A stretch of 64,000 nucleotides of DNA from the NCBI RefSeq assembly GCF_028389875.1, contig NC_084702.1, forward strand, positions 40,485,053 to 40,549,052. Direction: 5' to 3'. Positions 3,378 through 49,294 of the stretch are shown here, in pieces. The notes under the pieces were generated by a model, which worked only from the letters and a program-made list of their open reading frames with translations, did no database searches and had not been told where the DNA came from. The position numbers and the translations under genes were made by a program. Origin of the DNA: Rhea pennata. Its lineage: Eukaryota; Chordata; Aves; Rheiformes; Rheidae. Within the stretch, counting starts at the first letter, position 1. Every line of letters begins with the position of its first letter.

Positions 3378-4215
3378 CTGACAGGCAATACAGCAGTTTA
3401 AATGCAATCTTCAGAAATGGAAAAGGGACTAACCTTCAAAAGCTCTGCCTATAAACATGCAGAAAGAAGGGTTATTTGTTTGTTTGTTTTTACATTTCTG
3501 CATATGACTATACTTTTATAAAAGTGATGGAGATGAATAGTATAAAAGAAGAGATACCTAGGCTATCCAATCATGTAACTTTCTTCTAGTGCCATCTGGG
3601 ATACAAAAATCTGCATGTGCCATCTGTAGAACAGAGCCAGCTCTCTTGCTGCTGAGCTCCCAGTTGCTGTATTTGAAGAGAAACAGCTTTGTCTTGAGGA
3701 GTGGACTGCTCTCTGTCACTTGATGTGCTGTACTGAAGACAGCTTCTTTTTATTAAAAGGGATATTTATTGCATATATATACTGTGATTCAGTTTATTTC
3801 TGACATGAGTGTTACGTGTGTTTTTTTTTCCTTTGTGAAGTCTTCATCTTGAACGTGCACTCTGATGTCTTTTCCAGAAAGTATTTTGAATTTTTCATAA
3901 TTAACATTTACTTATTTGTATATAATTTAATTATTTTACCTTGTGCCTTCTTCACATTGTCAGTGCAAGGACCACATTTATATTTGTTCAAATTTTAACT
4001 TAAATTAACAGTACGATGATATGCCTCAGAAATATTTTCCTCCCCCCAGAATCATCTAGCACTGTGTTGAAAACTGAGCAAGCACTTCAGCAGTTGCCAG
4101 AAAAAAGGGCTTTTTTGTTTTTGTTTGGTTGGATTTTTTTTTACACTGTTTAACAACTAGCAAAAGCTGTTGGATCTTTCTGTTAATAAAAATATCATAC
4201 AGTGGAATGCTAAAA
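3378..4215 (+). other. ATG12: ATG12 3' untranslated region
   Basis: Follows the ATG12 stop and is AT-rich with several T-runs. A canonical AATAAA lies at 4185-4190, so the end is placed about 20 bases after it. A longer 3'UTR cannot be excluded, because T-rich sequence without genes continues to about 6 kb. Confidence 0.45.
4185..4190 (+). promoter_or_regulatory. ATG12: Likely polyadenylation signal of ATG12
   Basis: AATAAA about 810 bases after the ATG12 stop codon. GT-rich sequence (TGTGTATGTTCC) follows at about 4225, as expected downstream of a cleavage site. Confidence 0.4.
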
Positions 4216-6073
4216 CCCTATTCTGTGTATGTTCCTTTGGTGACTGCTCTTTTCCTGCTTTGCCAGGTGCATGTTCCGTCAAAGAAATAGAATGCACTTC
4301 ATATCCCTTTAATAAGTTTTAAAGTAATGAGGATTTTTTTTTCATCCTGGAGAGGAATTGGTACCCTGATTACAGTATCAGCCTTTGCTTTTGGGGCAGG
4401 AGAGCAGTTATTTTAAAATTGTCTGTTGTACAATCTTTTATTTAAAAGATTGTTTAAGCTTTACTAAAATTTAAGCTGTAAATGTTAGCTGTTTGCTTGA
4501 AGAATGTTGTTATGCTAGATGACACTTCTGGTCAATGACATAATTTGATTCTTCAGCAAATACAAGCCAGATGACCTGTCCTAGGTTAAAGCATGCTTGT
4601 CCAACTCACTGAGGTGATTTTTGCCATTTCGTGCAACCTGTATATGTAGTATGGGTGGCTTTTATACAGTCTCTGCAACCCATGTATTAGATTTTTCCAT
4701 ATTTGCAGAACTTCTGGAGAGCAAATACCCAGCTTACCCTGCTAATGTTGCTGCAGTTTGACAGCATGTAGATAACACTTGGCATGATAACATAGGCATA
4801 TGCCCTGAATGTATAATACATACATCACATTAGAAAGGTTTAAACTTTATCCAACTATTCATGTAGAAGGCTTATATTGGAGTCTTTTAGATTCAGCTGA
4901 CAACATAGAATTGGTTCCAAACTTAAAACACTGTAATCCATACTTTTGCCTATTCAAAATGCTAGTCGTGGTATAGTAAGTCTATTTAACAAAACTAATG
5001 TGAAAGTCACTCTGTGCCTGTCCCCTTGAAACCAGCTCTGCCTGCTCGGTTACTGTAAAGCTATTGTAACCTTGTATAGCCGCTAGAGGGTACGCGAGGA
5101 CAAAGATACATGCATAGTTTTTCTAGATTTTTGTTTTCTGGTGTTTTTTAATGTCCATTTTGCCTCCTTTACAAATGTAAGTAGTTTTCTCTTGTTTGTG
5201 GCAGTACATTTGCCTAAGATAAGCTACTAGTCTGTGTCTCTTTCTCTCTAAAGAATGTTTGATTGCTGTCTTTCACCTCACTTGATCTTAACAAATGAAA
5301 CTATTGGTGTAGTAGTGCAAATACATGTAGTGATGCAAGAAAAATAAGATGAAAACAAACCACTAGGATCTTGAGGTGAAGGAGGATTGTAGGTCATTGT
5401 ATCTTGCCATCTAATGGTAGAAGGTTGTTTTTATGTTGAATCTATTGGTAAGCTTTATTCTCTTAAGTTTAAAAGAAAAAAAAGTTTACTTCAATCTCCT
5501 ACAAGTTAATAGTCCAGTCAAGTAAACTCTGCAGTAATAGTTCTGATTTCCTTTATTCAGTACTGTTTTTTTATTTGAACAACTTACATAGATTTATGAA
5601 TTATGTATTAAAGATTCAGCATGTTCTTTGAATTGTATTTAATTACTTATTTCAATTTGTTCCTACATTTCTATTTCTAGTGGTTTCTTTTAGCTAAACA
5701 CTATCCTGTTTTATTAACTGCAGAAGCTTCCCCAGTAATTCTAATTCTGTGGCTTATTTTTATTTTATCTGTCAAATTTTTGAGAGGTGACACTAGCCCC
5801 TAAATCCCCTGTCTTATCACAAGGACACCACTATTAAATGTGTATCAGATAGTACAGGGAAAGCAGAATTGTATAAAATTAGAAGTGCTTCCCCTATCCA
5901 AAAGCAGGACTAAGTGTATTTAATTGTTCCTGGTAGGTATTTGAGTAGACAAACATCAGTAATGATGAACCTTTTTACAAGCTCTATAGGCAGTCTCTTC
6001 TAATGCCTAACACTGCTATATTGCTTTTTAAGCTTTTTTTTCCCCTACTCCCTTGCTGCTACCTATATATAGG
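4216..6073. other. AT-rich spacer, nothing assigned
   Basis: No gene, repeat family or RNA recognised. There is a possible minus-strand acceptor at about 5462 after a T-rich tract, with 16 open codons to a stop at 5411. It could be a last exon for the candidate gene at 6084-8407, but it is too short to judge. Confidence 0.4.
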
Positions 6074-6083
6074 TATGACTTAC

Positions 6084-6294
6084 CATATCCACAGATGAAG
6101 TGGAGATTACTCTGTTCTCTGCTAGAATTTTTTCATGTATTGATTTTTCTTGACTCCTGATCATTCCATGTTTCTCATCTGCACCCTCTCCATCACCTTC
6201 ATATCTTTCTTGAATTACAGTATTCCGAGTGGTGTATAATACCCTAGCTGAAGCTTCAGAGATAAGAGATCTATTTGTAATTAGTCCTAGTATT
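6084..6294 (-). CDS. Candidate coding exon D of an unrecognised minus-strand gene
   Basis: A 211-bp segment bounded on the minus strand by a pyrimidine-rich acceptor (TCTCCACTTTCACTCTACAG) and a GTAAGT donor. One frame is open for 70 codons; the product includes ILGLITNRSLISEASARVLY and is acidic in the middle (EGDGEGADEK). It takes one base to complete its first codon and ends on a whole codon, which fits the upstream candidate exon at 6403-6436. No family recognised. A 70-codon open frame in AT-rich DNA can arise by chance, so the case rests on the whole chain of exons. Confidence 0.42.
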
Positions 6295-6402
6295 CTGTAG
6301 AGTGAAAGTGGAGAAACTGTCTTCATTCCTAATTTTTCTTCAAACCCCAACTCTTTTAGTATTTCTTAGCCCTAAGTTTGCTAGTAAATAGTGACTACTC
6401 AC

Positions 6403-6436
6403 CTGATCCAGCTCTTGCCAGTCTCTTCCTTCGATA
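6403..6436 (-). CDS. Candidate coding exon C of the same minus-strand gene
   Basis: A 34-bp exon with a CAG acceptor after GATACCC and a perfect CAG/GTGAGT donor, 108 bp upstream of exon D. Joined to its neighbours it reads VSKEETGKSWIR. It accepts the one base left by exon B and leaves the two bases that exon D needs, so both junctions are in phase. The SINE at 6474-6611 lies just upstream in the same intron. Confidence 0.38.
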
Positions 6437-6473
6437 CTGGGGTATCAACAATTATAACATACTTAATTCATAG

Positions 6474-6611
6474 AAGGAATCATAGAATTGGTGAGGTTGG
6501 GAGGGACCTCTGGAGATCATCTAGTCCAAACCCAAACGAGTGGCCTGTACAGGAATCAAACCCACGACCTTGGCATTATTAGCACCGTGCTCTAACCAGC
6601 CAAGCTAAACC
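6474..6611 (-). mobile_element. TguSINE1-like tRNA-Ile SINE with CR1 tail
   Basis: Read on the minus strand, the first 70 bases resemble tRNA-Ile(AAT): GGTTAGAGCACGGTGCTAAT, then a box B GGTTTGATTCC. The remainder is the CR1 3' end (GGACTAGATGATCTCCAGAG, then CAACC and an ATTCTATGATTC tail). A tRNA-Ile head fused to a CR1 tail is the structure of the zebra finch SINE TguSINE1. It is nearly full length and only moderately diverged. Its presence is the best clue that the host is a passerine. Confidence 0.82.
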
Positions 6612-7566
6612 TAACCCCCTCGATTTACGTAATTGAAAGAACAGAATAGGCAAATCAGGAAAAATCAGAAGATTGAGAAATGATTAACTGAACTAGATAT
6701 TTAGATGATTAATGAGTTGAAAATAAATTAGTAGGGCTTTTTTTTTTTTAACAGCAGAACTAGGTAATCTATATGCAGCAGTTAGAAGAACTGAGAGTAC
6801 TTGCCATTCACATTAACTTGTAAAAACAGTCCTCTAAATCTGAGGCCTGAATGGCAGCTACAAGGTACAGGGGCATCATAGTACAGACGTGCTGATTTTA
6901 CAAAACTTTTAAATGGGCCACTCCAGGTTGTCTCTGCTGCATTAATAAATCCCAGATTCTTCTATCCAGCTTAATGATGCTACTGCTGTTACACCGAATT
7001 GTCTTGCAGCTTCTCGAATGTGTTAAACAGAAATGATCACGGCAGAAAAGCCACTGTGGTCTCTCAAATCATGCCTGTGAATGGGATTACTTCTCTCTAT
7101 CTATAGTGATCACCAAAGAGGAGGGTTTTTTGAAAAGACACTTGTATCCCCTATATATTTCTACAGGTAGCACAATCAAAGTTCTTGGCACTGAGTAGTA
7201 TTCACAGGAATTGCTCAATATCAGGTTACCAGGGCCGTTGTGACTTATCTGAAATCCAAGTATCAACTGGTAAGTGATCTTATCTGACCTATTGCACTGT
7301 TTGTTCTGAAATTCTAATTTGTAACTTGAACTAGTCTAAAAGAGGAGAAATACAGAGGAGCTAAGTGAAACTAAGGTTTCCTCAGCTGGGAGTGAAATGA
7401 TAACTGATACATTGTCACGTCAACTCTAGGCATATTAAGCAAATACCATTTTTATTCTTAATTCCTGAACTGCTAAGATATTAACAGAAGAGATGTATGT
7501 GTTAATTCGCTCCTCTCTTGAAGGGATGATCTCAGAGTAAAATGGAGGGGAGAAAAAAAGTCTTAC
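6612..7566. other. AT-rich spacer, no gene recognised
   Basis: No repeat family recognised. A plus-strand segment at 7168-7271 has a strong acceptor, a GTAAGT donor and one open frame, but 34 codons is within chance expectation. Confidence 0.4.
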
Positions 7567-7703
7567 CCAATTCCTCCTGGACTCTAAAGCAGCTTCTATT
7601 CATCCATTGCTGCTGCTTACAGTCATTGCGCAGATCAAATCCTGGTTTTAGTTGCACAGGCTTTTGTCTTACGCTGTTCTCTGAATCTGAAGTCTTCATT
7701 ATT
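7567..7703 (-). CDS. Candidate coding exon B of the minus-strand gene
   Basis: A 137-bp segment with an acceptor after CCTCCCTGAAG and a GG/GTAAGA donor. One frame is open for 45 codons, including MKTSDSENSVRQKPVQLKPG and CKQQQWMNRSCFRVQEEL. Residue use is that of an ordinary soluble protein, basic and glutamine-rich, not of translated AT-rich noise. It starts by completing a split codon and leaves one base, which matches candidate exons A and C. Confidence 0.4.
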
Positions 7704-8370
7704 CTTCAGGGAGGTTGTACGGAGGTTACTCAAGGCATTATCTAGCCTACAGCATCTTTGTACTTTGCGATGAAGCAGAAGAGGGGAAAATACCTTTAAA
7801 CTGGGGTTTTGCAAGATAAATGTGATCCTATTGTATAAAACACCATGTGTAGGGGGAAAAAAAGTTTTAGCCTTATTTTCTCTTAGATCATTAAGAGAAC
7901 AAAAACACTTGGTAAAGTCTTTGCTGGTATCATACTTAACGTGCTCCCAAAATGAACTATGTATCAGAAGATTCTATGCAATTTTCTTGTTCCTGCTTTG
8001 CACATGCTGCAATAGGCATAATAACATGAAACATCAGATACATCTCACCGTATTTTAGTTATTAGAAAACTTTGACTCTATGTCTCACTACCTAGAGAGA
8101 CAAAAGCTGATTTTAGAGGTTGTGTTGTTCCATCCTAAAATAGATGGCTAAGAAAGGTTGAATGAATCACGTTGTTGACTAAAAAGAGTGCTGAAATAAG
8201 TGAGTTAGATGTTTAACATTATGCCTGTCAGACTACATCTGTGTTACTAAATTCAGTAGTGCCAAGAAACTTTCTGGGGCACTGTAGCTCAGTCATCTGT
8301 ACTGTTAATTGGTAGAATAGCTGCTGGCACAGATTTTGGCCTGTGCACAATTCATGAATTAGCAAGGTAC

Positions 8371-8407
8371 CTTTTCTGGTAGGCACTTTGGACGTGACTG
8401 GCCTGTT
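8371..8407 (-). CDS. Candidate coding exon A of the minus-strand gene
   Basis: A 37-bp exon with a T-rich acceptor region (AACTCTTTTAAGCTCCAG) and an AAAAG/GTACCT donor. In the frame required by exon B it reads QASHVQSAYQKR. Short exons are easily found by chance; the support is the phase match to exon B. The upstream partner is unknown. Confidence 0.3.
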
Positions 8408-8755
8408 CTGGAGCTTAAAAGAGTTTAATAACACAGACAGAAACTGTTCTTTGCCTGTTGATTTCTGTGCTAGAGAGCAGTCCTTGGCATGTTTGTTAGT
8501 AGATACGCAGTCCCAGTTTCAGGCGAGATTTCATTCCTTGTAACCTCATTGAGTAAAATTAAACTCAATGATTAAAACTCAGTGAGTAAAATTAAACTCA
8601 GTGGGGGGCGGGGAGGAAAAAAAGTCCTTCTTCTAGCCTTAGGAGCACTCCCACAATTTTTTTTTTTTTGTGAGTGGTTCTCCAGCTTTCCTTCCATGTA
8701 ATCATCGCGCATATACTCACTCTAAATGCCTAGCAATAGCTAGATTCAGCATTGC

Positions 8756-8756
<1 letters not shown>

Positions 8757-8789
<33 letters not shown>
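8757..8789. repeat. (TG)16 microsatellite
   Basis: Sixteen uninterrupted TG units in the ATG12-CDO1 spacer; probably length-polymorphic. Confidence 0.95.
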
Positions 8790-8791
<2 letters not shown>

Positions 8792-10104
8792 AGGATGCAG
8801 TTTGCAGATAGTGAGGAAATAGTGTTTTACATCTCAGTAATCAGTAAGATTTAGTTTCAGTACAGTAGTTTCAGTGTGTGTGCTCTGCATCTTCTCATGG
8901 AATAATTGCACAGGAAAAATAATTATATATATCAATCAGACTGAATGAAACTTGTTAAAATATCATTGCTATTATTTTAATAGTAAGGGGACGTGGAGGG
9001 CTTTAGTAATAAAAAATGAAAAAATAAAAATAAGAGGTTAGAGTTAAATATTCCAGTTGCAAAAAGCAATATGTGAAGTTTAAAGTAGAAAAAATCTTTC
9101 CCTCAAACCCCCCTTGGTAACAGAGCTAATAACCTTGGCAACTCTTGGGAACTAAAATGCATTAAGAGCTTTCCAAGTCTGAAACAGGAAACCTCAAAGA
9201 AGAGAAGGATTCCAAACAGAAAACTACAGAGTAAATATTGTCAGCTCAGAGAAGTCTAGGCAGGACTTTGTTAACTTTATCATATAAATATTGCAGACTG
9301 AAAGAAAATGAAATTTATTTTAAATTGTTTTTTCTCAGAGAGTGAATAAATAGGTCAATATTTTATATTTTATTTATAACATATACACCTTACAGATAGC
9401 ATATAGCCTTCAACCAAAATTGAACATCAAAGTAATTAACTCAAACTAAATGTTTGGTCTCAGACTTTTTTGTGAATCTTTGTGCAAGCAGCAGTCTGAC
9501 ACAAAACCTGTCAGGTACTGAGGGATGTATCCAACTTAGCAGGTTACATGACAGAGAGGAGGCTGCAGCGCTGTTCCGCAGCCCCAGCATGAGGCTGCTT
9601 TCAGGCCTCATTTGGATGTAGGGCTCCATCAAGTTCATTGATTATTTAGCTTGGTCTTCTGGATCAAAGTGTGGGAGCTGCTGCTTTGGATGGTGACATT
9701 GCTATACATTTCCAAATAGCAGCCTGAGTTATGTGTGCAACAAACACACACTTATGTTTCCTCCTGATTCTAACCCAAAAGTGTCCTTCCAAGATCCCAA
9801 TGACATTCACAGGAAATAGAAGGGGCACATCTCTAGGTGCCATAGACTGAGTCACTTCAAGTTTTCAGATGCAGACCTTGCTAAAGCATACAAATGTGTG
9901 GGTTTTTTGTTGGTGGTGGTTTTTTTGTTTGTTTGTTTGTTTGCTTGTTTTAGAAAAGGCAGTAGCCCTATTGTAGGATGTAGTGCTTTGGGACTTTAGT
10001 ACACAATATTGTCTTTCAGTAAGGCAAGGTCCCCTGGGGCAGGTCATTAGGCTTTTATCTATACTATTATCTGCTTAATGAAACGCTCTGGTCTCTTCAC
10101 TTAC
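8790..10104. other. Spacer, no gene assigned
   Basis: AT-rich to 9440. At 9440-9860 both strands hold short open frames and moderately GC-rich sequence that may be an old transposon, family not recognised. A (TTTG)n run lies at about 9926-9950. Confidence 0.35.
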
Positions 10105-10234
10105 CTCAGACAGTTATCGACATCGAGCCATGTAGCCCCAAAACCTGCAAAGCAGTGCACCAAGACTCCGCATGCTGCGCACGTGAACTACGGCTGCGAG
10201 TCCAAACTCTCGCCGACACCAGCTTTGCAGTCCT
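10105..10234 (-). pseudogene. CpG-dense, splice-flanked segment; possible decayed exon
   Basis: Minus strand: a very good acceptor (TTTCTTTACTTTTGCAG), 130 bp, then a GAG/GTAAGT donor. It holds about nine CpGs in otherwise CpG-poor DNA. Every frame has a stop. The third frame, apart from one TAG, reads a cysteine-rich stretch (FTCAACGVLVHCFAGFGATW) with a C-x2-C spacing and a VH that recall PHD-type zinc fingers. It could be a decayed exon, a noncoding exon or chance. No family assigned. Confidence 0.25.
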
Positions 10235-10727
10235 CTGCAAAAGTAAAGAAACTAGGGTGAGCAGGGACCTAATAGCGATGATAAAGTGATTCAGGTCCCA
10301 GTACCCGGCAGAGGAGGCATAGGTGCTCATTACTGATTTGAAGAGCTAGGCTCTCTTCAGGCTAACGGGCTGGAGGGAAGAAGTACAGTCCAGTCGTTTG
10401 TCACAATAACCTGAGGACTCAGGCACCTTAGATCCCATTTTCTATTTGCTCACAACTTTCATTTGGAACGATAGGCTGGCTCATGAAAATCTTCAACCCC
10501 AAGCTGTATGTCCAGGCCCAAAACACAGTGCAAAGTGCCTAATATTGCTGGAATTTATGAATGCCATCCTAATAAAAAATTTTCCTAAATGAGCCAGGGG
10601 AAAACCTGTGAGCTGCACCCCAATGGGAGGCGAGGTGCCCATACTTGCTTGGCACCTTCAGCTGGTAAGACTCTTTTGCAGTAAGAGGTCCTGTTCACTG
10701 ATTGCTTGAAGAGCTTGTACTTGTCTT

Positions 10728-10795
10728 TTGGATAATAGTCCAGTGGTTAGAGCATCTGTCCAGAAAGCAGAGTCCCTATGGTTAAAGCCTAAACT
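10728..10795 (+). mobile_element. Ancient tRNA-derived SINE fragment (MIR/CORE-SINE type)
   Basis: AGTCCAGTGGTTAGAGCAT matches the box A region of amniote tRNA-headed SINEs. A GGTTAAAGCC stretch stands where box B is expected. Strongly diverged and short. Confidence 0.45.
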
Positions 10796-10799
10796 CCCA

Positions 10800-12510
10800 T
10801 TTCCCAAGACTTCTAACTACCAGGGTATCAGCAAGAATGGCTTATTGGTTTCCTGCCTCCCAATCAAGTCCTACCATTGGGAAGGAGAGGATGCAAGAAT
10901 GATTGACTTTGTAGTTTACTGATTACAGTATTTATGCTCCAGAGACTTGCTGTGCTTTCCACAGGAACTACATAGCGTGAAATACAGAAACAGTCATTGG
11001 ACCAAGTACTGAATTTCAGGATATCCCTTTATGCTTCTTCCCTAAAGCTACATTCTTGCTCTTGCTTTCTCTTTCTCTCTGGCCCAAAGAATATGTATTC
11101 ACTTTAGGTACTCTGGTGTTTACATATACGAGTATGCAGTGTCGCTGTGCGATCATACAGATGTCGTAGTATGATTCATAGCACAGATTCACTAGGACCA
11201 AATGTGATTATGTATCTTCTCCAAGAAACACCAGTGACTGCCACCATTAACCTAAGGGCAAAAAGCTCATTTGCCTTAAAATCAAGATACAAGAACCACT
11301 TTATGAAAACTAGCAGATGTAATTTCTGCAGGATTATTTAATGGGAATGTGGTACTAAGTACCTGCTAACCATGAAAGTCAAGGACTGAGACAACTGACA
11401 CTACCCCAAGACAGGGTGACAGATCTAATTTGTGAGGTGGGTTGGGTAGAGTAGGGTTCTGATAAAAAATGATGTAGAAGGGACTGACTGTATACTTTTT
11501 ATCTTTATTGATATATGACTATCTACCATTGCTGGTGCACAGTCCAGCTCCCGAGGAATTGTCAGAGGAGTTCAGGAACACCAGCTGCAGTGCTGCATCC
11601 TGCATTGAAAAGTGTCTAAAGGTAAACAGTGTCATTTGTTTCAACTTCAAGTTTATTTTCAAATAAACTTTAAGTAATTGGTCTTAAAAAAGACCTAAGA
11701 TTTTTGTTATAAAACTGAAAACTACTGCATCCCTTACATTTGTTGGAATATAGCCTCCCACAGTATATTATTCTAATGAACACCGAGATATATGTGCAAC
11801 AGTTCATTTCTACAGTTATAACTGTATAATTTTCAGCAATTAAAAGAAACTGGTAAAATGTTGTGCACTCCTTTATGAGAAACAGAACTGAGAACATGAA
11901 AACAATTCCTGTGCTGTGTGAATTACAATGCCCTCTTTTCTTTTTCTTTATTTTTTTTAATTTTCAGTGACAGCAACCCAGTGACTGAGGCTAGAAGCTG
12001 TTAATTGCTGCATATACTCAGATCCCTGTGCCAGTCCTGTCTACGGGACACTAGCGAAAAAGTAAACTATAGAGCCATAAATATTGTACCTAATGATTTC
12101 TGTGCAATCAAGTAATCAACTCCTTTGGGATCAACAAGCTGCACTGAAAGATTCAATATGGAAAAAGGGGAATAGTTTTGAATAAGGATTAAACAGAAGC
12201 GTAACATTTTCTCTTCCTACTAGAGAAATTCAAGCCCTTGGTTATGAAGTTAAGGAAAAGCTTTGGCAAATATACGGGTGGGCCATTACAAGTGTGCCGT
12301 AACGAACAGTAACAGCAGTTTGGCGCTGCAACAGGCTGATCCAGCCCGAGGCGTCGGGTGTAACACGGAGCGATGCAAAATGTCCTTTTGCTTCCAGCAG
12401 CGAGACTCCACGGCTTCGCTAACGCTCCCACCAACGCTGTGGCGAACGCATCCTGTTTCTGCGGTTGCCGGGGTTAACAGCAGATGCACCATTCGGGTTT
12501 TCCCCGGATT
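10800..12510. other. Spacer upstream of CDO1
   Basis: AT-rich with no gene recognised. Becomes CpG-richer from about 12270 towards the CDO1 island. Confidence 0.4.
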
Positions 12511-12886: not shown

Positions 12887-15800
12887 ATGGAGGCGCCGGT
12901 GCAGACGGAGATGTGGAAGGCGCGGAGCCTGGCGGAGCTGATCCGCATCCTGCACCGGCTCTTCGCCGAGGACAAGGTCAGCGTGGAGGAGGTGCAGGCG
13001 CTCATGGAGTCCTACGAGAGCAACCCCGAGGAGTGGCTGCAGTACGCCAAGTTTGACCAGTACAGGTACGGCCGGGCCGGGCCGGGCCGGGCCGGGCCGG
13101 GCCGGGCGGCGGCCGCGCTGCCCCGCGCTGCCGGCGGCGGGGCGGGGAGCGGGCGGGGAGCGGGCGGGGCGGCGGCGGCGGCCAATGGCGGCGGGTGCCC
13201 CGGCCCCGGCCCCGGCCCCGGCCCCGGCGCGGAGCAGCGGGCGCGGGGCGCGGGGCCGCGGGCGCGGCGCGGCTGCAGCAGCGTGTTGCCTCGGCCGCCC
13301 CGCCGGGCCCTTCCCCCGGCGGGCAGCGCGGGTTCAGGCCGCGCGTCCCGATGTCGGAGGGAGCATCAGAGCAGCGAGGTTTGACGACCCTCTCGTTTTG
13401 CTGACGTCCCGTTTACTCCTGCCATTGCTGGCTTCTAGGCTGCAAATTTATACGTAAATGCATTTTATTCTAGCGCCTATTTTAAAACAAATACCCCTTT
13501 CCTACTTCTAACCACTTTATCATGAAAGCATCCTTCTGGCTCTTCTTTCTTTCTTTCTTTCTTCCTTTTTTTTAATCTCTATTCTTCTCACATTGACTGT
13601 TCCTCCATTCAGAACAAATCACAAAATTGTAACAGAACACAGGAAACTAAGAACTAGAAAAATAAAGGATGGTAACATCAGAAGTATGCACAACAGCCTT
13701 TCTTTTGGCCATGCAGACCTGCTGTACAGAAAAAAAACACCATTTGAATAGTTCAGTCAAATGCCAGCCCAGATTGCTTAACTTCTGACATCATAGGAAA
13801 AAATATATTTACCCAATACACCAATTGCAGACAGAGTAAAAGGCAGCATATAGATATTATGCAATGCTTTGAGAGTAACTTGTTATGAATATCGTATCTT
13901 CTTTAAAATAGAAAATTAATCAGAAATTAATCAGAAAATTAGTGCAAAACATCCGGTTGTCATCAGTGACCCTTCTGCGTTTGTCTGTTAGGTGAGAGCA
14001 AGTCTCCTGTCACAGGCATGACTGTTTGCTTTACTTGGCACCCTGTGAGTAGTCAAAGATCAAAGCTGTAAAGGAAACCAGCAGGTCGCTTGTAGCAGGA
14101 CAGCCAGGAGCCCCAGCCCGGCGTCAGGACCTCCCCATGGAAAGCAACGCAAGCAACGGCCCGCAGCGCCTTCTCCAGGGGCCTTCTCGCTGCCATGAGA
14201 CAAGCAACAGCCCGGGGCCGGCTCGCAGCAGAGGGCACACAAACTAACTTCAAATGTGCTACCAAAAGTTTTTAAGCCTTGGGAGCAAATCATAGTCTAG
14301 AACACGCATGTGGATAAAAAGCCTTTAGAAACAAGCTTATTCCATGCTATTGTTAAGTTAGCAGATCTTTTTAAAATATTCTGCTATGCTTAACTTTGTT
14401 TAGAAGTAGATGCTGGCAGAAGTTACACAATAGGTATTTTATCCATACAAGAATGTTATAGTACAAGATGCAGAATTTTCAAGAAAAAATAAGAGTACCA
14501 TGTATGGTAAGCCTGATATATATACATCTACATACATACATATATATATATATATTTCTTTCTCCTTTTTCTCCTTTTTCTGCCTAATATGCAGGAGTGC
14601 TGCCCGAGGGAGAACAGCCAAGAATATCTGAAAATGAACTGTAGAAGAATGTAACCATGTATTTTTCTTTTCCTCATTGCAGTCTTCTGTTTCTAATTAT
14701 AAGCCAGCTGCTGAAGTGACTTCATTCAATAACTATTTTGATTTGATCCTGTCGTCCACTCTAGTCTCAGACTTCCAGTTCCCAAACTTCAATCATCTAT
14801 GTAATTCAAAAGCAATATGACTATCAAATATTAACTATGCCCAATTTTTTCTTCCCAGAAAAAGTACATCTACAAAAACAATTTAAAAACTCAAAATCAT
14901 TTTTTCCAAGCGAAACTTTGTTTTCAAGAAAACAGAAAAGGTTTTTATATGCTTTCTTCATAACCATGTTTGCATACTTTTTTTTTTATAGGCACATCAG
15001 TACTGATTATTCTTAAAAGCAAACACTTTGCCTTTCAGGTATACAAGAAATCTAGTGGACAGTGGAAATGAAAAATTCAACCTGATGATCTTATGCTGGG
15101 GTGAAGGGCATGGCAGGTTTGTATCCAAAGGTTACGGTTTTCTCAAAGTTACAGTATCTTTTGCTTGGATTACTGTCATATGAAAAGAGAAAAAAAAATC
15201 AGCCCTAAATTAACTATTAGAAAATGTCAGGAACTAAGCAGTACAGAACTCCTACTTATTCCTTTGCTATGGCAGTCCTGAATATTTGCTATAATATTTT
15301 TTGCAAGTTTGTACCTTAGGGACAGTTTTAGATCACTTAAAATATAACACTAATTATGGTCTCCTACCAAATCTATGCTTTCTTCTGTCTGCAGAAGTTT
15401 TTAATCCCAGGGATACAGTGGGTCCTACGGGCACTGAACAGACCTTGTTGCTTCTGAGAAATCTGCCTCAATTTGTGTTGCAAAAGCAGGTCTTAGTACA
15501 GTTTAAATAGTCTTTATTCTCTCATATCATTTAAATCCAGTCTCTGTGACATGAAGGGAAAAGTGGATTTGGGTTAGAAGTGTGGGGTGTGAGGAGGAAG
15601 CCCCTTTCCAGCACTGTGTGGCTTTCTGTAGGTTCCAGACATCCCAGCTCCTCCCTCAGAAGGGACCACACTGCTGCTGTGGCCTCGAGTTATATACATA
15701 TGTAGACATATATGTTATATACATGTGGATCATATGCTAGATTGCATAGTTCTGCAAAAGTGAGGGAGGATCTGTCCCTTAGAGGGTCTTTTACAAAATG

Positions 15801-18800
15801 TTTGGATAAAACCGAATGTGGATAACAAAACTTGCAGGTTTTGACTGATTGTACTTGCACATAAAGAGAAAACCCTTAAAGCTGGGGGGGGGGGCTGTTT
15901 CTGGCGTTTGTTTTTAATTGAGAATATATACTGAGCATTTAAAATATTTTCCTGGGGATGCTACACAGTTATACCCAGAGAGATGTAAGAATCAAGCCCA
16001 TCTCCTCTACTCCTCCTGGGCTTTTCCCACAAAGACTGTAATTCATGTCCAACTGTGTTTGGGTTGGATGAGCATTTGCTAGGAACTAGACTCAGACCAC
16101 AACTTGTTTTTGCTTCCTACATGAGGAGGATCAAATTGTTCTCATGGCTTGTGCAAGGAGCATGACAACGTGGCATTTGTGGACCGCTCATGCCTGAAGC
16201 TAGCCGTGCTCTCTTGGCATCTAAGTTTGTAACTGACATTTGTTTATTGAAAACAATAATGCACAAGTACCAAGTTTTTTTGGTTGAAACTCATTAGCGC
16301 TATACTTCAGGGAGGGCCAAATTCCCTCCCCTGCCACGAGTGGAGAGCTCTGCCTTTGTCCTAATCCCATCACATTCTGTAACAGTTAGGCATTTTAAAA
16401 AATAAAAATAAATAAAATAAATTGCATGTCTACCCTGTATGCCTTTAAACGTAGCAATTAAAATATACTTCTGAATAAGCAGCTAGATCAAGCAAGCAGA
16501 CAGATCATGGCAGCTCCTGCTGCTGTTCATGTTTTGCCAACTGGGGAAATTAATGGCTTGTTGTAGTCAGTTGTCCTTAGTGCCGTTAGAGCGGCAAAGA
16601 CAGCATTTTCTTTCTTCAGCAAACTCCTATGCATCTCAACAGTAGAGAGGTCCTAGAAATGAAGTAGTAGCTCATTTCTCCCATGCTTGGGGAGGGAGCA
16701 CTGTGGGTCTGCCAATATACCTGGTAAACGTGCAAGTCTATACTGGCCTCTGGCTGATCTGAAATACAGGCTGATACAAAAAATGGAGAAAAGCATCCTT
16801 TCGTGTCTTGGCCCACAGAGTTTTTGTGTTCTGAAAAACTGTCCTCCTACCTCCTCCAGATTTGCCTTTTCCCTCTGGCAAGGTCATAGGCTGACAGCTG
16901 TTTTTTTTTTGTTTTTTTTTTCCCTCCCCCCAAGTCCTGATAAATGTAAGCTTATCTTAACACATTTCTAATGCAGTTTTAAGTTAGCATATCTTTGACA
17001 TGGTGAATGTTTGTTTCTAAGAACTTTTTGTGTGCGTGATTGATAAGTGTGCAAAAGCATTTCATTCTAGGACTATGCCCAGGTACAATATGCTATGCCA
17101 TCTGTTTTGTTTGATGTATTTAAATTAAATATGTATTATCACACTGAGTTTGGTTATTCTTTTTGCTTATATAGTAGTATCCATGATCATAGTGACTCAC
17201 ACTGCTTTATGAAGATCCTCCAGGGAAATCTAAAGGAAACCTTGTTTGAATGGCCTGAGAAAAAAGGAAATGGTGAAATGACTAAGAAATCAGAACGTGT
17301 TCTGAGAGAAAATCAATGTGCCTATATTAATGGTAAGGTCTTCTAGTATCTTATTTGACAGCTACCAACCTATGAATCTGACTTCTTAACAGGATAGATA
17401 ATTCATGTGCTGGCTAGGCTCTTACCTTTAACAGTATCATAAACTTTACTCACTTGAAGAACCTGGCTAGTCAAATTGTCTACAAACCTGTATTTAGATT
17501 CAATAAAACAAACAAAATTTTCCTTTTAACTCACTCTTAAGGCATTGCAGCATTTGCTTGGTTGCAGCAATTGCTTAGTATTTAAAGATGCTGAATACTT
17601 CTTCTATACTGAGCAGCCTTCAGGACTGTGTCCCAAATAGCTGTCTGAAATTGCTTGTAAACATAAAGCTTAAATTGTACTGTATGAAAAACAAGAGAAA
17701 GAAAGTTTTAAAATTTGTAATCATTATAACTGCACAAAAAAATAATCCTTGTGATCTGTCACAGAAATCCTAGGGCAAAATGTAAAAGTAATTGTCCATG
17801 AAATAAAGTGAAGAGCCAGGAACAGAGGCCATGATCCTCAGTGTTAATTTTTGTCCAAATCAAAAAACAAACAAACAAACAAACCCCCCTCTAATGCTGA
17901 AGTATAGTGTCAGCAGAGCTGAAATATTCAAGTCTACCCAAATGGCATATAAAACGATTGCCTAACTCCGTAGATACCAAAAGACCTCTAAGTCTTCACC
18001 AGTAAGGTTCCCTAGGTACCTAACGCCATGCTGTTAAGCATACCTGTAAACTATTGCCACCTTGTGCCTGGGAGTCACCAGCTGGGCATCACGTTCGGAC
18101 CCTACAAAGGACATTACCCGTCGTGCTGAACTGCAATGAGTTCAGCAGAACAAGCGTGTCAGGGCAAAGGCTCAGCGAGGGGGGCTATCTGCCTTTTGTG
18201 CAGCAGCTGAATAATGACAGCGTGCCCCTGGGGTGCCCCCCTCCATTCAAGGGGGTCCACCCGCAGCTGCAGCTGGGCTTATGGACCAGGCTAGGGCAAG
18301 GGGCAGGGGGGAAGTGTGAAAGGAACTCTCCTGCCCTTTGCTGAAGATATGCCACGTTAACTGAAAACACAAAATTCACAGAAACAGAACACTTCACTCA
18401 GTAATGTGAGTCTATTTTAATCTCTCTTTACGTAAGTTTACCTTAAGGGCTTTTTTTTTTCCCTTTTTTTCCCCTCCCTACATATTTTATTTAGATAAAT
18501 CATGTGAACAAGACTTAGGGCTTACACTCTTAACTGATACATCTGAAATACACGTATGGTTCCCAGGGTATTGTGCCTACATTGCATAATACAGGTCTGA
18601 GTATTATATGACATATTAATTTAAGTACAAAGGCCTGAGTTGTTTTTTTTACAGCAGAAGTCATAAACTTGAATTCAAGGTCTCTCTTAAGTAACTCAAA
18701 AAGTCCATTTTAATGTAGAATTAAAAAGGATGCTTTTATGGATTCGATTCTTCATAGCTTACATTTTTATGTAATACTTTGACTTCTGCTCCATTGTCCC

Positions 18801-21800
18801 AGAAAATGCCATTACTTCATTAGTGGCTACACAACAGACTGTGTCTTATTACATGTTCAGTTACCCTTACTGTTTGGGTAAGGTTGGAAGTATGCCAGTT
18901 ACCAGTCATTTGTCACCTTAGACAAAAGACTAGACAAATGAAAAGACTGTTCTACTCCATACTAGTAAGTTGGAAAGATTAATTAGGAAATGCTTGTCTG
19001 CAAGAGAAGACAAGTATAGCTGTGCCTATGAGTCCATGTTCCAGATATATGAGCTGACTCTTAATGTGATTGATGCCCTTGTTACAGGGCTAAGAATTAG
19101 CAATATAAAAAGTCTCCCTGTAAACAGCCCTGCTGATTTTTAGAAACACAAATCTTTCTGCTTCTAGAGAACAGCAGCATCTCCTAGGAGAGTAAACCTT
19201 AAACTCATTTGGGAATGGCAGCTGGCAGATTACTGACTGCATGGCCTTCCTTAAGCTTCTTTTGGATTTCTTTTGGCCTTTATCCCACAGCAGATAATCC
19301 AGTAATTTACAAGTGTTGAAGGTGATAAGGTTTTCTGAAGTATCAATGTATTTAGGAAACTGTGCTAGAGAACAGCAGTCTAATTTGCTGTACTGAGTTA
19401 TACATTGTCCCTTAAAATGCAGGTGTGACTAACTGGCTTCTTCAGAAGTTTCAGCCTAGATGGCACTCTTCCAGGTATTCATGAGGTCTTGTTCAATCTG
19501 CCTGTTAATACAACCTTTCATTTCATGCCCTCGTCTGTCTAGACTCCATTGGCTTGCACCGTGTGGAGAACATAAGCCACACTGAGTCTGCTGTTAGCCT
19601 GCATTTGTACAGCCCACCCTTCGACAGCTGTAACACCTTTGATCAAAGGACCGGACACAAGCACAAAGTCAAAATGACGTTCTATAGCAAGTTTGGCGAA
19701 AGGACTCTATGTGTAAGTATGGGAAGCCTGGCGAAAGGACTCTGTGTGTAATATGCTCCCTGGCAAGTCTTTGACACCAACCACTAGCCCTTGTGCAGGG
19801 ACAGGACAGAGGAACTGCACTTTTTTCCCTTACAGAGCAGATCATTGGCTCTTGGGAGGCTCTCCAGGACAGACAGGAGTTGTAGCAATCTCACAGTACC
19901 TGGGGATCCGTATCTAGGATCAGGATAAGATACAACTCAAAAATACTCCAGTTTGTCAATTTGCACTTCCCTTATAATGCAGTTCTCTTCCCTGGTTTGT
20001 AAGGAAGTGCAGTAATGCAACCACCCATTTTATAAATAGGAAAACTGAGGCTGAGAACTTACCATCTATTAGTGATGATGCTGGATTTGGCTTCCTTGGC
20101 TCTACTTACCACCCCTTTCCCTATGGATGGTGTCCAGTTGTGTGAGGGGTGGAAGAGCCTAGTTCTCCTTTATCAGCAGGAGAGTAATTATGTGTGGAGA
20201 AGAGGATTAATGAGAACTTTGCTGTAGTTAAGCATCTTCAGACAGTAAATATAACCTAGTCAATGGAAAGCCATTAAGCAGCTAAATTATTTTAGCCAAC
20301 TGAAGTCATGTGTAACATTCCCTGCCTAAACTGTTCTGCCAAAAAGCATCATGTTTCAAGCCAGTTGTTTTAAACCCTGTAACTTACTGGAAGTAAAGCA
20401 AGATAAGTACTCAGACTTTTTAAAATCAAAACCTTTAAGTGGAAACACTTGCTTTGAGAGAGAGTAGACTGGTTGGCTGTTTTCTGCATTCCTGAGCAAT
20501 GTCAAGAGACTGAATCTGGATAGAAACAAAATCTTAAATGAGCTTTGGGGACCAAGCTAGGACATCTGGCAGGGTTTGATAGGATTCCCTTATAGCACTC
20601 CTCTATGTGTTGGAAAACGTAACCACATACAAGGGGAGAAAAGACAGATTTTTGTTGTGTCAGCCACAGAGGTTCAAAGACTGGTTTTGTTAGATACAGA
20701 ACACTTTCACCTTTCACCGAGGCCAGAAATTCAGTGCTTTGGACTTCTAAGGAGAGAGCCCTTAATAAGATCCAGCTAAAGATTTATATAATCAGCAAGC
20801 CCAATGTAAATTATTTCTTTGCAGCTTGTCACATTTAGTGATTACAACTTTACTAAATAGCTGAAACAGAACTTTCACCTTCAGAAGTTTGAAAGGTCTT
20901 TGAGAAAGTAAGCTCAAATTTACAACTGAAATTTTAAAGGAAAATGAACATAGAAAAAATGTTGAACAAGATTCACACAAGAGTTCAATATTTGCTTGTT
21001 TTCATTTTAAATGCTTATTGAATATGAAGTGTGTAAGATAACAAGTGAAACTAGATAATTTAACTTGGATTATTTTCCTGCTCACTGGCAGGAAACTGGC
21101 AATGTTTGTACATTTTGTAGGAAATGGGATTTGGCTTACAGGAGAGAGTTAAATCTTGATCACTGAGTCTCTTTCATGAATTCCTGTAAATGGAATTCTG
21201 GTAGGGAAGAGTTGTAGCTAGCAATGGGCCATCCAACTGTCTGAAATGCCTTCATGCTACAAAAACCTTTGGGTGTCAGTGATGGTTTCTGGAAAGCTTA
21301 CTGGAAACTCAAGCCTTCCTCTGTTTACCAGATCTCAAAATGACATAGGAAGGCAGAGAACTATACATTAAAAGTAAAAGGAGAGTAGTGTAAAGCACAC
21401 TTGTATACCTTCCTTAGTAGGAAGATTATTAAAGCACATCCAGTGCTTCCAATTTATCTGAAGTTTTTTTCTGTAGGTAAAACACTCAGGTAAATCTCTA
21501 GTGCTTATGCTGGAGTCTTAATTAATTAAACAGTAAATATATAAACAAGTTAAAGACCTAATAATTGAGATAGTGTGTAGTTAACTTACCAAGGACTTGC
21601 TCAAGAAAGAGACTGTTTCCACAGTTCAGGTATGAACCATAAGAATACAGATGTGAAAGTTCACTGAGGAAAACGTGGTTTTGTCTCCTGACTGTCAGAG
21701 CATATCAGAAGTTCTTGCTATCAGGATTTTTTCTAGGGTAGGTCATTTCTTAGCAGCCTGTCTTTCAAACTAGAGTTCCAGTTTCTTCAAAATGAAATAC

Positions 21801-22142
21801 AGCACAGTATCTCTGACAGAAAAATAGCCTAAAGGAGAAAGCACTCCTCAGTTGTCTCTTCTGCACTGGACTTGCCCATGGTCACACAGAGACCAAATGG
21901 ATAAGGAAGCTAATTTTATCAGGTACTATGGTATCTGGGCCATAGTATCCTCTATAAAACGTGAATAGTAACCTTTTATCTTGCTGGGAGTATTGCAAAG
22001 AAGAACATTAAATATTTTAAGGTGCTGAGCTATGCTGGTGTTGTTAAGAACAATATGGTCACCGTCTACTCTTAAGTCTCTTAAAAAAGAAATCTCTCCT
22101 CTTTCTTTTTAGGCAACAGCAGTGCCACAAGAGAACAACTGA
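12887..22142 (+). CDS. CDO1: CDO1, cysteine dioxygenase type 1 (5 coding exons)
   Basis: Coding exons 12887-13065, 15039-15116, 17175-17332, 19543-19712 and 22113-22142 encode 204 aa (human 200). The enzyme is a cytosolic cupin that adds O2 to L-cysteine to give cysteine sulfinate, the entry to taurine and sulfate formation. The iron ligands are visible as H89 and H91 in SSIHDH and H144 in GLHRVEN. C96 and Y161 (LHLYSPPFD) are the Cys-Tyr cofactor pair and R63 the carboxylate-binding arginine. The protein ends in ENN as in mammals. The start [11 protein letters not shown] is a few residues longer than the human N terminus. Exon 5 adds only nine codons, and the C-terminal tail ([11 protein letters not shown]) diverges from the human one. 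All introns are GT-AG. Exon 3 has a TAGTAG acceptor and the exon 4 donor lies in a local duplication. Confidence 0.95.
13071..13105. repeat. (GCCGG)7 repeat at the start of CDO1 intron 1
   Basis: Seven perfect GCCGG units begin five bases after the exon 1 donor; able to form G-quadruplexes and likely unstable in length. Confidence 0.9.
13198..13228. repeat. (CCCCGG)5 hexanucleotide repeat in CDO1 intron 1
   Basis: About five CCCCGG units. On the minus strand this is the GGGGCC motif known from C9orf72 expansions, here at short length. Confidence 0.9.
16721..16758 (-). other. Exon-like segment antisense within CDO1 intron 2
   Basis: A 38-bp segment with a strong acceptor (CAGCCTGTATTTCAG) and a CAG/GTATAT donor on the minus strand. 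One frame reads [12 protein letters not shown] and another [12 protein letters not shown]. The second leaves one base, as candidate exon A would need. Too short to prove anything alone. Confidence 0.2.
20024..20100 (+). mobile_element. MIR SINE fragment in CDO1 intron 4
   Basis: CCATTTTATAAATAGGAAAA followed by CTGAGGCTGAGAACTTACC is the conserved MIR/CORE-SINE 3' region. Old and truncated. Confidence 0.65.
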
Positions 22143-22870
22143 GAAGCACCAGCATGTGTTTGCTTAAGACCTGCTGAATGTTTAACCAGGGACAGACGAC
22201 TTGTATGGCTAAGGCTGACAGCCAGCTATATTTCTGTAACTTGTACATAGAATGACAGTAGGGCAGCTTCCAGGCAACCCGTAGTTATCTTGAATGAATG
22301 CTGATTACAGGACACTAAGCTAACTAGTGCCATAAACTACTTCAGAGGTTAAATGCCTTTTCTTAGGCTATTGTCAAGTCAGAATTGAGTAGTTTGTTTT
22401 CTGATTCTAGCCTCCTTTTAATTCTACTTTCTGAGAATATCAAAACCAGAGGTTTTTTAAACATCACCTGACACTACTTAGTAGGCCTACATGTATGTAT
22501 GCGCTCAATATAATTAATGATAATATAAACTTTTAAGCTTCCATTCACTTGTACCTATGGGTAGTATACTAGATACTACTAATAGCAGCTCTTTTTTTAT
22601 TAAGTCTTCTTGGATTTAATGCTGTAGGCCATTTTGATAGTTTTGTGCATTTTTTACTTTATTTTTTACAATTTGTTTATCAGATCTTGTTTTAAATAGG
22701 AGCAATAAAGTGCTTCATGTACAATAATTTCTAAAAGTGATTGGGCAAAGATTTGGGTTTTTAATGAGACTAATTATACTTAATACAACTAATGTCCAGT
22801 TTCCAAAATACTCTGTATAACTACTGAACGCCTTTCAGGTAACTAAAATAAAACTGGATCTGCGCACAGA
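22143..22870 (+). other. CDO1: CDO1 3' untranslated region
   Basis: AT-rich sequence after the CDO1 stop with two polyadenylation signals: AATAAA at 22704-22709 and a second at 22847-22852. The first gives a 3'UTR of roughly 580 bases. Confidence 0.65.
22704..22709 (+). promoter_or_regulatory. CDO1: Likely polyadenylation signal of CDO1
   Basis: AATAAA in the context GAGCAATAAAGTGCTTC, with T-rich sequence following. An alternative AATAAA lies 143 bases on. Confidence 0.6.
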
Positions 22871-34281: not shown

Positions 34282-35262
34282 GAAAAGGGTCTGAAAGACC
34301 AGCTTGTCTAAAGCTGGGTTTCTGTTCAGCCCAGTCATCTGACCCCAGACAAAAGTCACAAAGCTAACTTCCAACTTTGCCAGCTGTAGTTCTTCCAACT
34401 TGCCAGTACTTTTACATCAAGGATGAGGACAGGTCAAATCACCCTGTTGACACAAAGATATGCTTTGGCAGCAAAGACACACATAGGACATGGATGGGCT
34501 GGACACACATAGGTGACCTTGCCTGTCTCTTTCACAAGCTTAAGTATTACATCAGTTCTTGTTGGAAACTCTCCCTAGCCAGGCTCTTTGTAAAAAAATG
34601 ATGGTTTAGCCTAGTTTAGTTTAGATGGTTATATAGTTATGTGTATACAGGAACTGCTCAACTGACTTAGCAATAACATATTTAGAGCTACCTTCTTGCA
34701 CAACGAAGAAAAGTGATAGCTTCAAACATGTTAGTCTGAAAAGTCTCAACAGAACTGTCCAAATATTTTCAGCATTTATTTTATTGTCATTCCAATACAA
34801 TGCATAAAAAAGTTGGAGATAAGATAGATAGTTTTCTCATTCTGATTCTGGATAAAGACAAAGCAAGAAGTTCCTCCACCAGGAGCTCACAGTGTCTGGA
34901 GATAAAACAGGAGTAGTATTGAGGAAAGGAGATATTGTTACACACTTTTTGAAACAAAAAAATCTTAGGCAAACAAACAAGAATGATTTGCTCAATACTA
35001 CCACAGGTTGTGTTATTTTGAGGAACTGAACCCAGTTCTCCTGTCCTAGCAACCAGAGTATCCTTCTACTTCATTATTCTCTTTGCAGTAACATTCAATA
35101 TAGTGTATGGCAAGGTATAAATATACAGCATAACAAATCAACACGGATCAGCTGATGGTTTATGCATACACACAGTTCATCTATGTCTTCCATAACATGG
35201 GTCAAAAAAGATATCCACAAATGTTATTCATAGATTTTTGCAAGAGTAAAAATCTATGCTAT

Positions 35263-35377
35263 CATCAGCACTTAAGCACAAAGATTGATTGGTTCTCTAA
35301 AGTTGTGCACTATAGTAGAAGTGACATGTATAACTTAAACCCACAGGTCAGTTGGTTCTCCTTCTGCAGCCTTAATG
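35263..35377 (+). repeat. 115-bp direct repeat, copy 2
   Basis: Begins CATCAGCACTTAAGCACAAA. Aligns with copy 1 without a gap, 1.5 kb away. Directly followed by a degenerate ATCTATGCTATA minisatellite. Confidence 0.85.
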
Positions 35378-35452
35378 CTATATCTGTGCTTAATATCTAT
35401 GCTATATCTATGCTATCTTAATATCTATGCTATATATCTATGCTACTGCTAT
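35378..35452. repeat. Degenerate ATCTATGCTATA minisatellite
   Basis: About six imperfect 12-bp units (ATCTATGCTATA and variants), starting directly at the end of copy 2 of the direct repeat. Confidence 0.7.
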
Positions 35453-35454
35453 AT

Positions 35455-37355
35455 CAGTAATTGGAGAAATGTGGTCTTTAAGGTCATGATAAAAGGTCAA
35501 TAGAACCATACTAAATAACAATTTCAAATGAAACTGATGGCAAGGTTACAAAGATATCCTTAGCTCTTCTGAGTGCTAAGAGGAAGAGGGCACAAGCAGC
35601 TTTATTACTGCAATGGCAGAAGACATCTCCTCTATGTATCTCCTCTAGTAGGACAGACTATGTGAAAAGCTGACATACTGCACCTCTACCTGACCTTCAG
35701 TTTTCTGCTTTTTAATAAAGTTAAAAGAATGTGAAGAGCAAGAGAATCTCTTCTGTACCAAGGAATTTCAAGGCACAACTTTCAGAGGTCTGAAATTTCC
35801 TCCAGGTATAATAGAACAACTAGCAGTCTGTCAAAATGCTGCACAAGGAATACAGACTTATGATTAGCTTGCCATTCTCTGTGTAATGTTTTTTCCCCTT
35901 CTTTTAAAAATTCTATACCGCTGTTTCTATTGATCGAGTTATTTCACATTTGTTTGGCACATTAAAATATTCTGAAACATTAAATTATTTCAATATTTAC
36001 CGTGGTTGGTTGCCAGAGAAACAAGTCAGAAGCTAACGCAGGCTCCTTCCTTGTATTTTGTCTTATTGTAGAATGATAGGACTGATTTTGCCTCATTCAT
36101 TGTACAATTATTTAAAAAGTCCACCTCTGAAATGAAAAGGCAAATAATGGCAAATGCCAAACTGTTTCCATGTATCTGAAAGACAAAATTCTACATGCTT
36201 GTCTTGCTACTCAGTTGGGTGTTTTAAAAATAGGATATTTAAAAATGAAAGCTCAAAATATTAGAAAAAGGCAAAAATGGCAGCTGTTTTATAGAAGTTT
36301 TGCTTCTTTTAGTAGAATTCTGTGTGTAAATGTTGCTTAAATATATTGAAATAGCTTTTTGTTAAAATATGTGAAACCAAAAATTTATGTCTATTTTTTT
36401 TCAATTTTTAACTCAAGCCCCCAAAAGGTGAAGTTTTTCAGTTTCTCATCATTCACAAGCTCTGTTTCTTCAGCTTTGCTTTCCTTCTACCCTAGATATT
36501 TAAGGAGAAAAATTGCTAGCATTGTAGGTTTCTCTTTCTTTCATTGAATTGATATGGGAGGAAATGGAATAATCTCACAGCTCATTGTAAGATAGCATAC
36601 TGATGAGAATAGTAGAAATACCTACCCAGAGTTCAGAGGTTAGGGTTGGGCCCTCTAGCAAAACATGCAAGGAAAGATCTAACAAAGAAATATTTTTTTA
36701 TTGCCCAGCTTTCTGAAATGTGTTACTCTTTCAGTAAATAGCCCTTTAGATTTGCTGAGAGGAACACATATTTGGGAACGAGGACGAGGTGCTCAGTTTC
36801 ACTATCAGCTCCTTCCAGCCAAGGCTACAGCTCAGCTAGCTTTCGCTTTCAGCATGCAGAAATGGTGTCAATCAATAGTTAAATACGAACATGAATAGAG
36901 CCTTTGTGAAAATTTCTGTTGTGCTTTTGAAAGCACACAAGCTACAACAAAAAATCTTCTGACAGTGTGTGGAAAAACAAAACTGAAAAGCTTGAACAAC
37001 CTTTCCCAGTTAGAAAGCTAGCCATATAAACTCTTCAATATTGAATGTTCTTTGCCACTTGGATGAAAGCTTGTGTTCTGAGATCTGACTGTCAGGGAAG
37101 CCCAACAGCAGCTATGTGCATTTCGAGAAGTGTTCCTTAGTTGTGCAAATTGATTGGCTGCATTTTTATTCACATTCATGAAGCATTTTGCAGAGGTCAT
37201 TGTATTTGCCTTGAGTAGGTTTCCTCATTAAAGACATTAGCAAGACACTGAGCAGTTTACAGATCTTCACTCAGATCTGACATATTACAAACTCTGCTGA
37301 ATAAATCTCCAAGTGAGCTATTCCCTTATCTGGAAGAATCAATATTGGATTTTAT
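35455..37355. other. AT-rich spacer, nothing assigned
   Basis: No gene, RNA or repeat family recognised. Confidence 0.35.
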
Positions 37356-37358
37356 GTC

Positions 37359-38821: not shown

Positions 38822-38829
38822 CTGGAAGA

Positions 38830-49290: not shown

Positions 49291-49294
49291 TTAC

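What the first reader, a model, noticed from the sequence alone, without database searches (positions are those of the whole stretch)
6084..8407. Unassigned spliced coding chain on the minus strand between ATG12 and CDO1
Four segments (8371-8407, 7567-7703, 6403-6436, 6084-6294) have acceptor and donor sites, open frames and splice phases that fit at all three junctions (2 to 1, 1 to 2, 2 to 1 bases). The 34-bp middle exon has to satisfy both neighbours, and does. Residue use is protein-like (CKQQQWMNRSCFRVQEEL, then VSKEETGKSWIR, then ILGLITNRSLISEASARV). I know of no gene here in mammals. The family is unknown to me. Phase and open frame together could still arise by chance in AT-rich DNA.
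Basis: partly seen in the sequence, partly recalled or inferred. Interest (0 to 1): 0.7.

Follow-up and report, generated by a model that had tools for sequence, protein, structure and literature searches.

The report
Probable unknown bird gene fragment
Between two well-known bird genes, on the opposite strand, lies at least one stretch that looks like a genuine spliced, probably protein-coding piece of a gene that fits no known family; whether it is used or shared with other birds could not be tested here.

Summary
The four segments, their splice dinucleotides, phases and open frame are as described: 139 codons, 126 from the first ATG. They are not equally supported. D (6084-6294) has strong splice sites, 70 open codons and coding-type periodicity; exons passing the same filter are expected 0.026-0.042 times per 128 kb of strand, and both hits in 400 kb of control strand were exons of genes I recognise. 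C's near-perfect donor is followed by a 108-nt intron and D; 2 of 760 control anchors had such a partner. The C-D splice is probably real. B is moderately supported (41 of 480 anchors) and reads better as a start exon: an in-frame stop lies just upstream of its ATG. A, and the acceptors of B and C, are ordinary. Pfam gave nothing; the only PDB hits (THI4, E 0.01) lack a defining residue. No other bird genome or RNA data were reachable, and the whole-genome search for other copies of D did not complete. Best reading: part of an uncharacterised minus-strand gene of unknown family, probably coding. Non-coding transcript, chance or repeat origin remain possible.

The parts
6084..6294 (-). Exon D: internal exon, 211 nt, acceptor phase 1, ends on a codon boundary; ILGLITNRSLISEASARVLYTTRNTVIQERYEGDGEGADEKHGMIRSQEKSIHEKILAENRVISTSSVDM
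   Evidence: acceptor 4.8, donor 4.1, 70 open codons, TESTCODE 1.095 (1.066 when trimmed to whole codons)
6295..6402 (-). 108-nt intron between C and D
   Evidence: donor CAG|gtgagt (6.3; donors of 6.2 or better are 0.005 per kb of control strand) paired with D's acceptor in fitting phase
6403..6436 (-). Exon C: donor end strong; 5' end uncertain (acceptor -1.1; an in-frame stop at 6470-6468 limits a coding exon C to about 65 nt)
   Evidence: (sequence)
7567..7699 (-). Exon B as start exon: ATG at 7699-7697, 44 codons, donor at 7567|gtaaga, phase fits C
   Evidence: 41 of 480 control anchors have an equal or better one; TESTCODE 0.56 does not support coding
8371..8407 (-). Segment A of the finding: unsupported (weak acceptor and donor)
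10105..10234 (-). Candidate 5' untranslated exon: strong acceptor (4.1) and donor (5.4), CpG-rich patch; a stop in each of the three minus frames
   Evidence: CpG o/e 0.93; 0.05 in 9600-10100. Strand not certain: the plus strand also has splice sites around it
6477..6619 (-). TguSINE1-like SINE (tRNA-Ile-like head, CR1-like tail) ending about 40 nt above exon C (a few matches run on to within 20 nt)
   Evidence: 42 of 43 listed genome matches lie within 6457-6628, most in 6477-6619 (40 of 3929 candidates were scored); structure compared with passages of PMC5729268

Best explanation
D, joined to C by a 108-nt intron, is a real part of an uncharacterised minus-strand transcript lying between CDO1 (which points away from it) and ATG12 (which points towards it). 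D is most likely a coding exon. In the simplest model, transcription starts upstream (perhaps at the CpG-rich exon at 10105-10234), translation starts at ATG 7699 in exon B, continues through the short exon C into D, and ends in one or more exons below 6084 that I could not fix (a strong donor follows D; one candidate last exon starts at 5893 and would add GKHF and a stop, with AATAAA at 5764). The product would be a small, polar protein of about 130 residues with no known domain, so if it acts as a protein it more likely binds other proteins than catalyses. Shown: sequence, phases, site strengths, open frame, periodicity of D. Inferred: transcription, splicing, start, 3' end, function.
For: D-type exons (acceptor 4.5 or better, donor 3.8 or better, at least 200 nt open): 8 in 3000 simulations of 8150 nt and 6 in 2983 of 10 kb, i.e. 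0.042 and 0.026 per 128 kb; 0 of 3000 also had a C-like partner. In 400 kb of real control strand (all 20 fetched stretches, both strands) the 2 strict hits were exons of genes I recognise. In a graded ranking the 8 distinct control intervals at 12.5 or more (rows with local GC above 0.55 dropped) look like exons of known genes by my recall of their peptides; D scores 12.8. Adding TESTCODE of 0.95 or more leaves 3 of those 8, and D passes. A C-like partner within 300 nt: 2 of 760 anchors.
Against: B and the whole chain lack coding periodicity (0.56, 0.67), though 5 of 8 control exons also fall below 0.95. C's acceptor is weak and a SINE ends about 40 nt above it. D is only just above the clean zone: at ranking 12.0 or more with TESTCODE 0.95 or more the control holds 7 distinct intervals, of which 4 are gene exons, 2 look repeat-derived and 1 is unassigned. 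On the graded score alone 0.27 features as good as D are expected per 128 kb. A whole-chain score did not favour the interval: best chain 31.0 against 33.7 on its plus strand, and that chain skipped C (the method separates known genes poorly). No Pfam family and no credible PDB match. Thresholds were set after seeing D. No conservation or RNA evidence; copies of D elsewhere in this genome not checked.
Confidence: 0.48

Rival explanations
1. The C-D splice is real but belongs to a long non-coding transcript (for example from a promoter between CDO1 and ATG12); the frame is incidental.
For: Strong C donor and D sites; B and the chain have no coding periodicity; the CpG-rich candidate exon 10105-10234 is closed in its three minus frames; no family match.
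Against: D's frame is open for 70 codons with TESTCODE 1.095, and the 3 control intervals passing both tests at D's level were coding exons.
Confidence: 0.2
2. Chance: splice-like sites and open frames that happen to fit in AT-rich DNA, picked out of 128 kb of strand.
For: A and the acceptors of B and C are ordinary; 0.27 features scoring like D expected per 128 kb; 41 of 480 anchors have a B-like exon; chain scoring does not favour the interval.
Against: The strict filter expects 0.026-0.042 per 128 kb and gave no hit outside recognised genes in 400 kb of real control strand; C partner within 300 nt at 2 of 760 anchors.
Confidence: 0.17
3. D is one exon of a longer minus-strand gene that reaches up past CDO1 to the protein-like exon 49295-49511 and perhaps 40382-40710; B and A are then not part of it.
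For: 49295-49511 has acceptor 2.2, donor 3.9, 71 open codons, TESTCODE 0.93 and only two weak further genome matches; its end phase fits D's start directly. 40382-40710 has the highest ranking score of the window outside GC-rich stretches (15.9) and also fits D in phase.
Against: CDO1 lies in between on the other strand; features scoring 10 or more are expected 4.4 times per 128 kb; 40382-40710 has no coding periodicity (0.41) and does not follow 49295-49511 directly in phase; no linking exons found.
Confidence: 0.1
4. D is a remnant of a transposable element or a decayed duplicate.
For: Two control intervals just below D's score (L013, 12.3) look repeat-derived.
Against: No second copy in the window nor in L002-L031; the genome-wide search that would settle it did not complete for D.
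Confidence: 0.05

Closest known systems
Ordinary multi-exon vertebrate protein-coding gene without known domains (orphan gene)
   Same: GT-AG introns, fitting phases, an ATG shortly after an in-frame stop, a periodic open exon
   Different: No transcript, no homologue and no complete 3' end shown; the acceptors of A, B and C are weak
THI4 thiamine thiazole synthase (PDB 3fpz, 4y4l)
   Same: phmmer aligns residues 49-116 of the spliced query with E about 0.01; I count 20 identities in that alignment
   Different: The residue aligned with the yeast sulfur-donor cysteine (its position is recalled) is leucine; no Pfam match at E up to 10; the solved chains have 326 and 346 residues and the match covers 66; not seen again at E up to 1 with the unspliced strand. 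Taken as chance
TguSINE1 (passerine tRNA-Ile/CR1 SINE)
   Same: The element just upstream of exon C has a tRNA-Ile-like head and a CR1-like tail with an ATTCTATG end
   Different: It is a neighbour, not part of the frame

Membership tests
Protein-coding gene | Canonical splice sites joining open frames in fitting phase | tested here: met
   (all three junctions fit); sites strong only for D and C's donor
Protein-coding gene | Coding-type periodicity along the whole frame | tested here: inconclusive
   D 1.095, B 0.56, B+C+D 0.75, chain 0.67; seven known ATG12, CDO1 and TMED7 exons 0.74-1.29
Protein-coding gene | Complete frame from start to stop with polyadenylation site | tested here: inconclusive
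   ATG 7699 after an in-frame stop; several possible last exons, none outstanding
Protein-coding gene | Transcription and conservation in related species | not testable with these tools
   No RNA data and no other bird genome in the collections reached (one search says the genome has no relatives there)
THI4 family | Match to the family profile | tested here: not met
   Pfam hmmscan at E up to 10: 0 families for the spliced product and for three minus frames of 4001-12300
THI4 family | Sulfur-donor cysteine (recalled) | tested here: not met
   The alignment puts leucine there
TguSINE1 (element beside exon C) | tRNA-Ile head, CR1-like tail with 8-bp ATTCTATG end, dispersed copies | tested here: met

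The most novel reading that the evidence does not exclude
A bird gene of a new protein family, sitting between ATG12 and CDO1 on the opposite strand and absent from mammals, of which B, C and D are exons.
Probability: 0.2. Interest if true: 0.5.

Novelty: new member of a known kind. Interest (0 to 1): 0.3.

Why it matters
If real, it adds an unassigned gene in an interval where, as far as I recall, mammals have none, and would be a small test case of genes kept in birds and lost in mammals. In kind it would still be an ordinary spliced gene.

Tried and rejected
THI4 homology: rejected, see Closest known systems; two literature listings on THI4 in animals (titles and starts of abstracts only) did not help. 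Pfam on the spliced product and on side frames and on three minus frames each of 4001-12300, 34901-44900 and 44801-54700 with stops read as serine: only hits far below the curated cut-offs; the minus strand of 12.3-34.9 kb was not scanned. PDB with 49295-49511 and with three minus frames of 4001-12300: noise. Related loci for D in genome contigs and viral contigs, and for 49295-49511 in viral contigs: none confirmed. Rfam at gathering score and tRNA scan of the window: none. A home-made whole-chain gene finder was biased to GC-rich DNA: the interval's best chain scored 31.0, its plus strand 33.7, minus 14000-22150 34.7, and the CDO1 and TMED7 stretches 22.0 and 31.5, so it does not separate known genes from controls; reversed sequence proved a bad control. 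I used single-exon filters instead. An amino-acid composition z-score does not discriminate (background mean 2.04) and was dropped. My first idea that 49295-49511 belongs to a SPAG17-like protein was recall only and found no support. Its two further genome hits (L010 E 0.05 with a stop, L011 E 8.9) score 4e-5 and 2e-4 when searched only against my fetched loci, a set that was chosen for containing them; I take them as chance. Literature searches on ATG12 with CDO1 (listings with starts of abstracts) showed nothing on a gene in this interval; passages of PMC5774710 only place a rat transcript, HAfT20, in the same 1-Mb neighbourhood in the mouse.

Full report
SETTING. The window carries ATG12 (+, from about 811), CDO1 (+, from about 12887) and TMED7 (+, from about 55 kb), named by me from their reading frames. 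The finding lies in the 8-kb interval between ATG12 and CDO1, on the opposite strand.

OBSERVATION. Segments 8371-8407, 7567-7703, 6403-6436 and 6084-6294 have GT-AG borders and join without a stop in one frame: 139 codons, or 126 from the first ATG. Their splice sites are very unequal: D 4.8 and 4.1, C's donor 6.3, but A -1.5 and 0.9, B's acceptor -0.2, C's acceptor -1.1. In 400 kb of control strand (all 20 stretches of 10 kb fetched from the same contig, both strands), acceptors of -1.5 or better come 15 per kb, donors of 0.87 or better 2.9 per kb, donors of 6.2 or better 0.005 per kb. So A is not evidence. B's frame begins at 7705 right after an in-frame stop and holds an ATG at 7699, which makes B a natural start exon.

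CHANCE. Exons like D (acceptor 4.5 or better, donor 3.8 or better, at least 200 nt open) appeared 8 times in 3000 simulations of 8150 nt (order 3) and 6 times in 2983 simulations of 10 kb (order 4): 0.042 and 0.026 expected per 128 kb, the two strands of the window. None of the 3000 had a phase-fitting C-like exon above it. In the 400 kb of real strand the filter found 2 intervals, both parts of genes I recognise (PIGG/PIGO-like, ADGRV1-like). With the acceptor relaxed to 2.0 there were 7 rows: 4 such gene exons and 3 rows in two CpG-rich stretches. The window itself has two strict hits outside GC-rich stretches, D and 40382-40710. A graded ranking (site scores plus a bonus for open length) gave 8 distinct control intervals at 12.5 or more after dropping rows with local GC above 0.55; the 8 look like known gene exons. 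Below that, gene exons mix with repeat-derived and unassigned frames. D scores 12.8. On that graded score alone, simulation expects 0.27 such features per 128 kb, so the strict filter is the kinder test; thresholds were set after seeing D.

C, B AND CODING. A phase-fitting C-like exon lay within 300 nt upstream at 2 of 760 control anchors and within 1600 nt at 8 of 760; the first hits of these came from two places. A B-like start exon lay within 3 kb at 41 of 480 anchors. TESTCODE gives D 1.095 (4 of 227 background frames reach it), B 0.56, B+C+D 0.75, the chain 0.67; the seven known exons tested range from 0.74 to 1.29. With both tests (ranking 12.5 or more and TESTCODE 0.95 or more) 3 of the 8 control intervals remain, all gene exons, and D passes too. 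At 12.0 or more there are 7 distinct control intervals: 4 gene exons, 2 repeat-like, 1 unassigned. So D sits just inside the clean zone. Coding evidence rests on D. A whole-chain score did not favour the interval over controls, but it did not single out known genes either.

IDENTITY. No Pfam family matched the product or three minus frames of the interval. PDB gave two THI4 sequences at E about 0.01, with 20 identities by my count; the alignment lacks the sulfur-donor cysteine and Pfam disagrees, so I take it as chance. D had no second copy in the window or in loci L002-L031; the whole-genome search for D did not complete. Searches of prokaryote and viral collections confirmed no relative, as expected for a bird sequence. 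Literature listings showed nothing on the interval.

SURROUNDINGS. A TguSINE1-like element (mostly 6477-6619) ends about 40 nt above C; 42 of the 43 listed genome matches to 5900-8500 fall within 6457-6628 (40 of 3929 candidates scored). TguSINE1 is reported as active in early passerines (PMC5729268, passages). If C's acceptor is older than the insertion, its branch site lies close to the junction; if not, C is young. At 10105-10234 a CpG-rich patch (o/e 0.93 against 0.05 in 9600-10100) is bounded by a strong minus-strand acceptor and donor and has a stop in each minus frame: a possible 5' untranslated exon, though plus-strand sites flank it too. Below D no terminal exon stands out.

CONCLUSION. 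C-D is probably a true splice junction of an uncharacterised transcript, and D probably a coding exon; B may be its start; A should be dropped. Transcription, conservation and function are untested. Interest is moderate: a likely orphan gene, ordinary in kind.

Noticed in passing
window 49295-49511, minus: Protein-like internal exon (SGNKQSLQQDQRANKYATITFPDGSITEFHVNDKDNCVVYYLTPKCSLLIQKTSVFILGNREVGIEFKRDS) between CDO1 and TMED7; no Pfam or credible PDB match and only two weak further matches in the genome.
   Followed up: partly
window 40382-40710, minus: Highest-ranking exon-like interval of the window outside GC-rich stretches (329 nt open, acceptor 4.9, donor 4.9, score 15.9; 0.005 expected per 128 kb) but no coding periodicity (0.41). 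The plus strand is open over most of it too.
   Followed up: partly
window 10105-10256: CpG-rich patch bounded by splice sites on both strands, about 2.6 kb upstream of the CDO1 start codon; could be a 5' exon of either strand.
   Followed up: partly
window 56045-56096: Partial match (86.5% over 52 nt) to the CR1-like tail of the SINE beside exon C.
   Followed up: no
G000 contig C1, 216.9 Mb: The genome has TguSINE1-like SINE copies, reported from passerines, but a contig of 217 Mb, longer than I recall for passerine chromosome 1; the lineage of this bird is unsettled.
   Followed up: no
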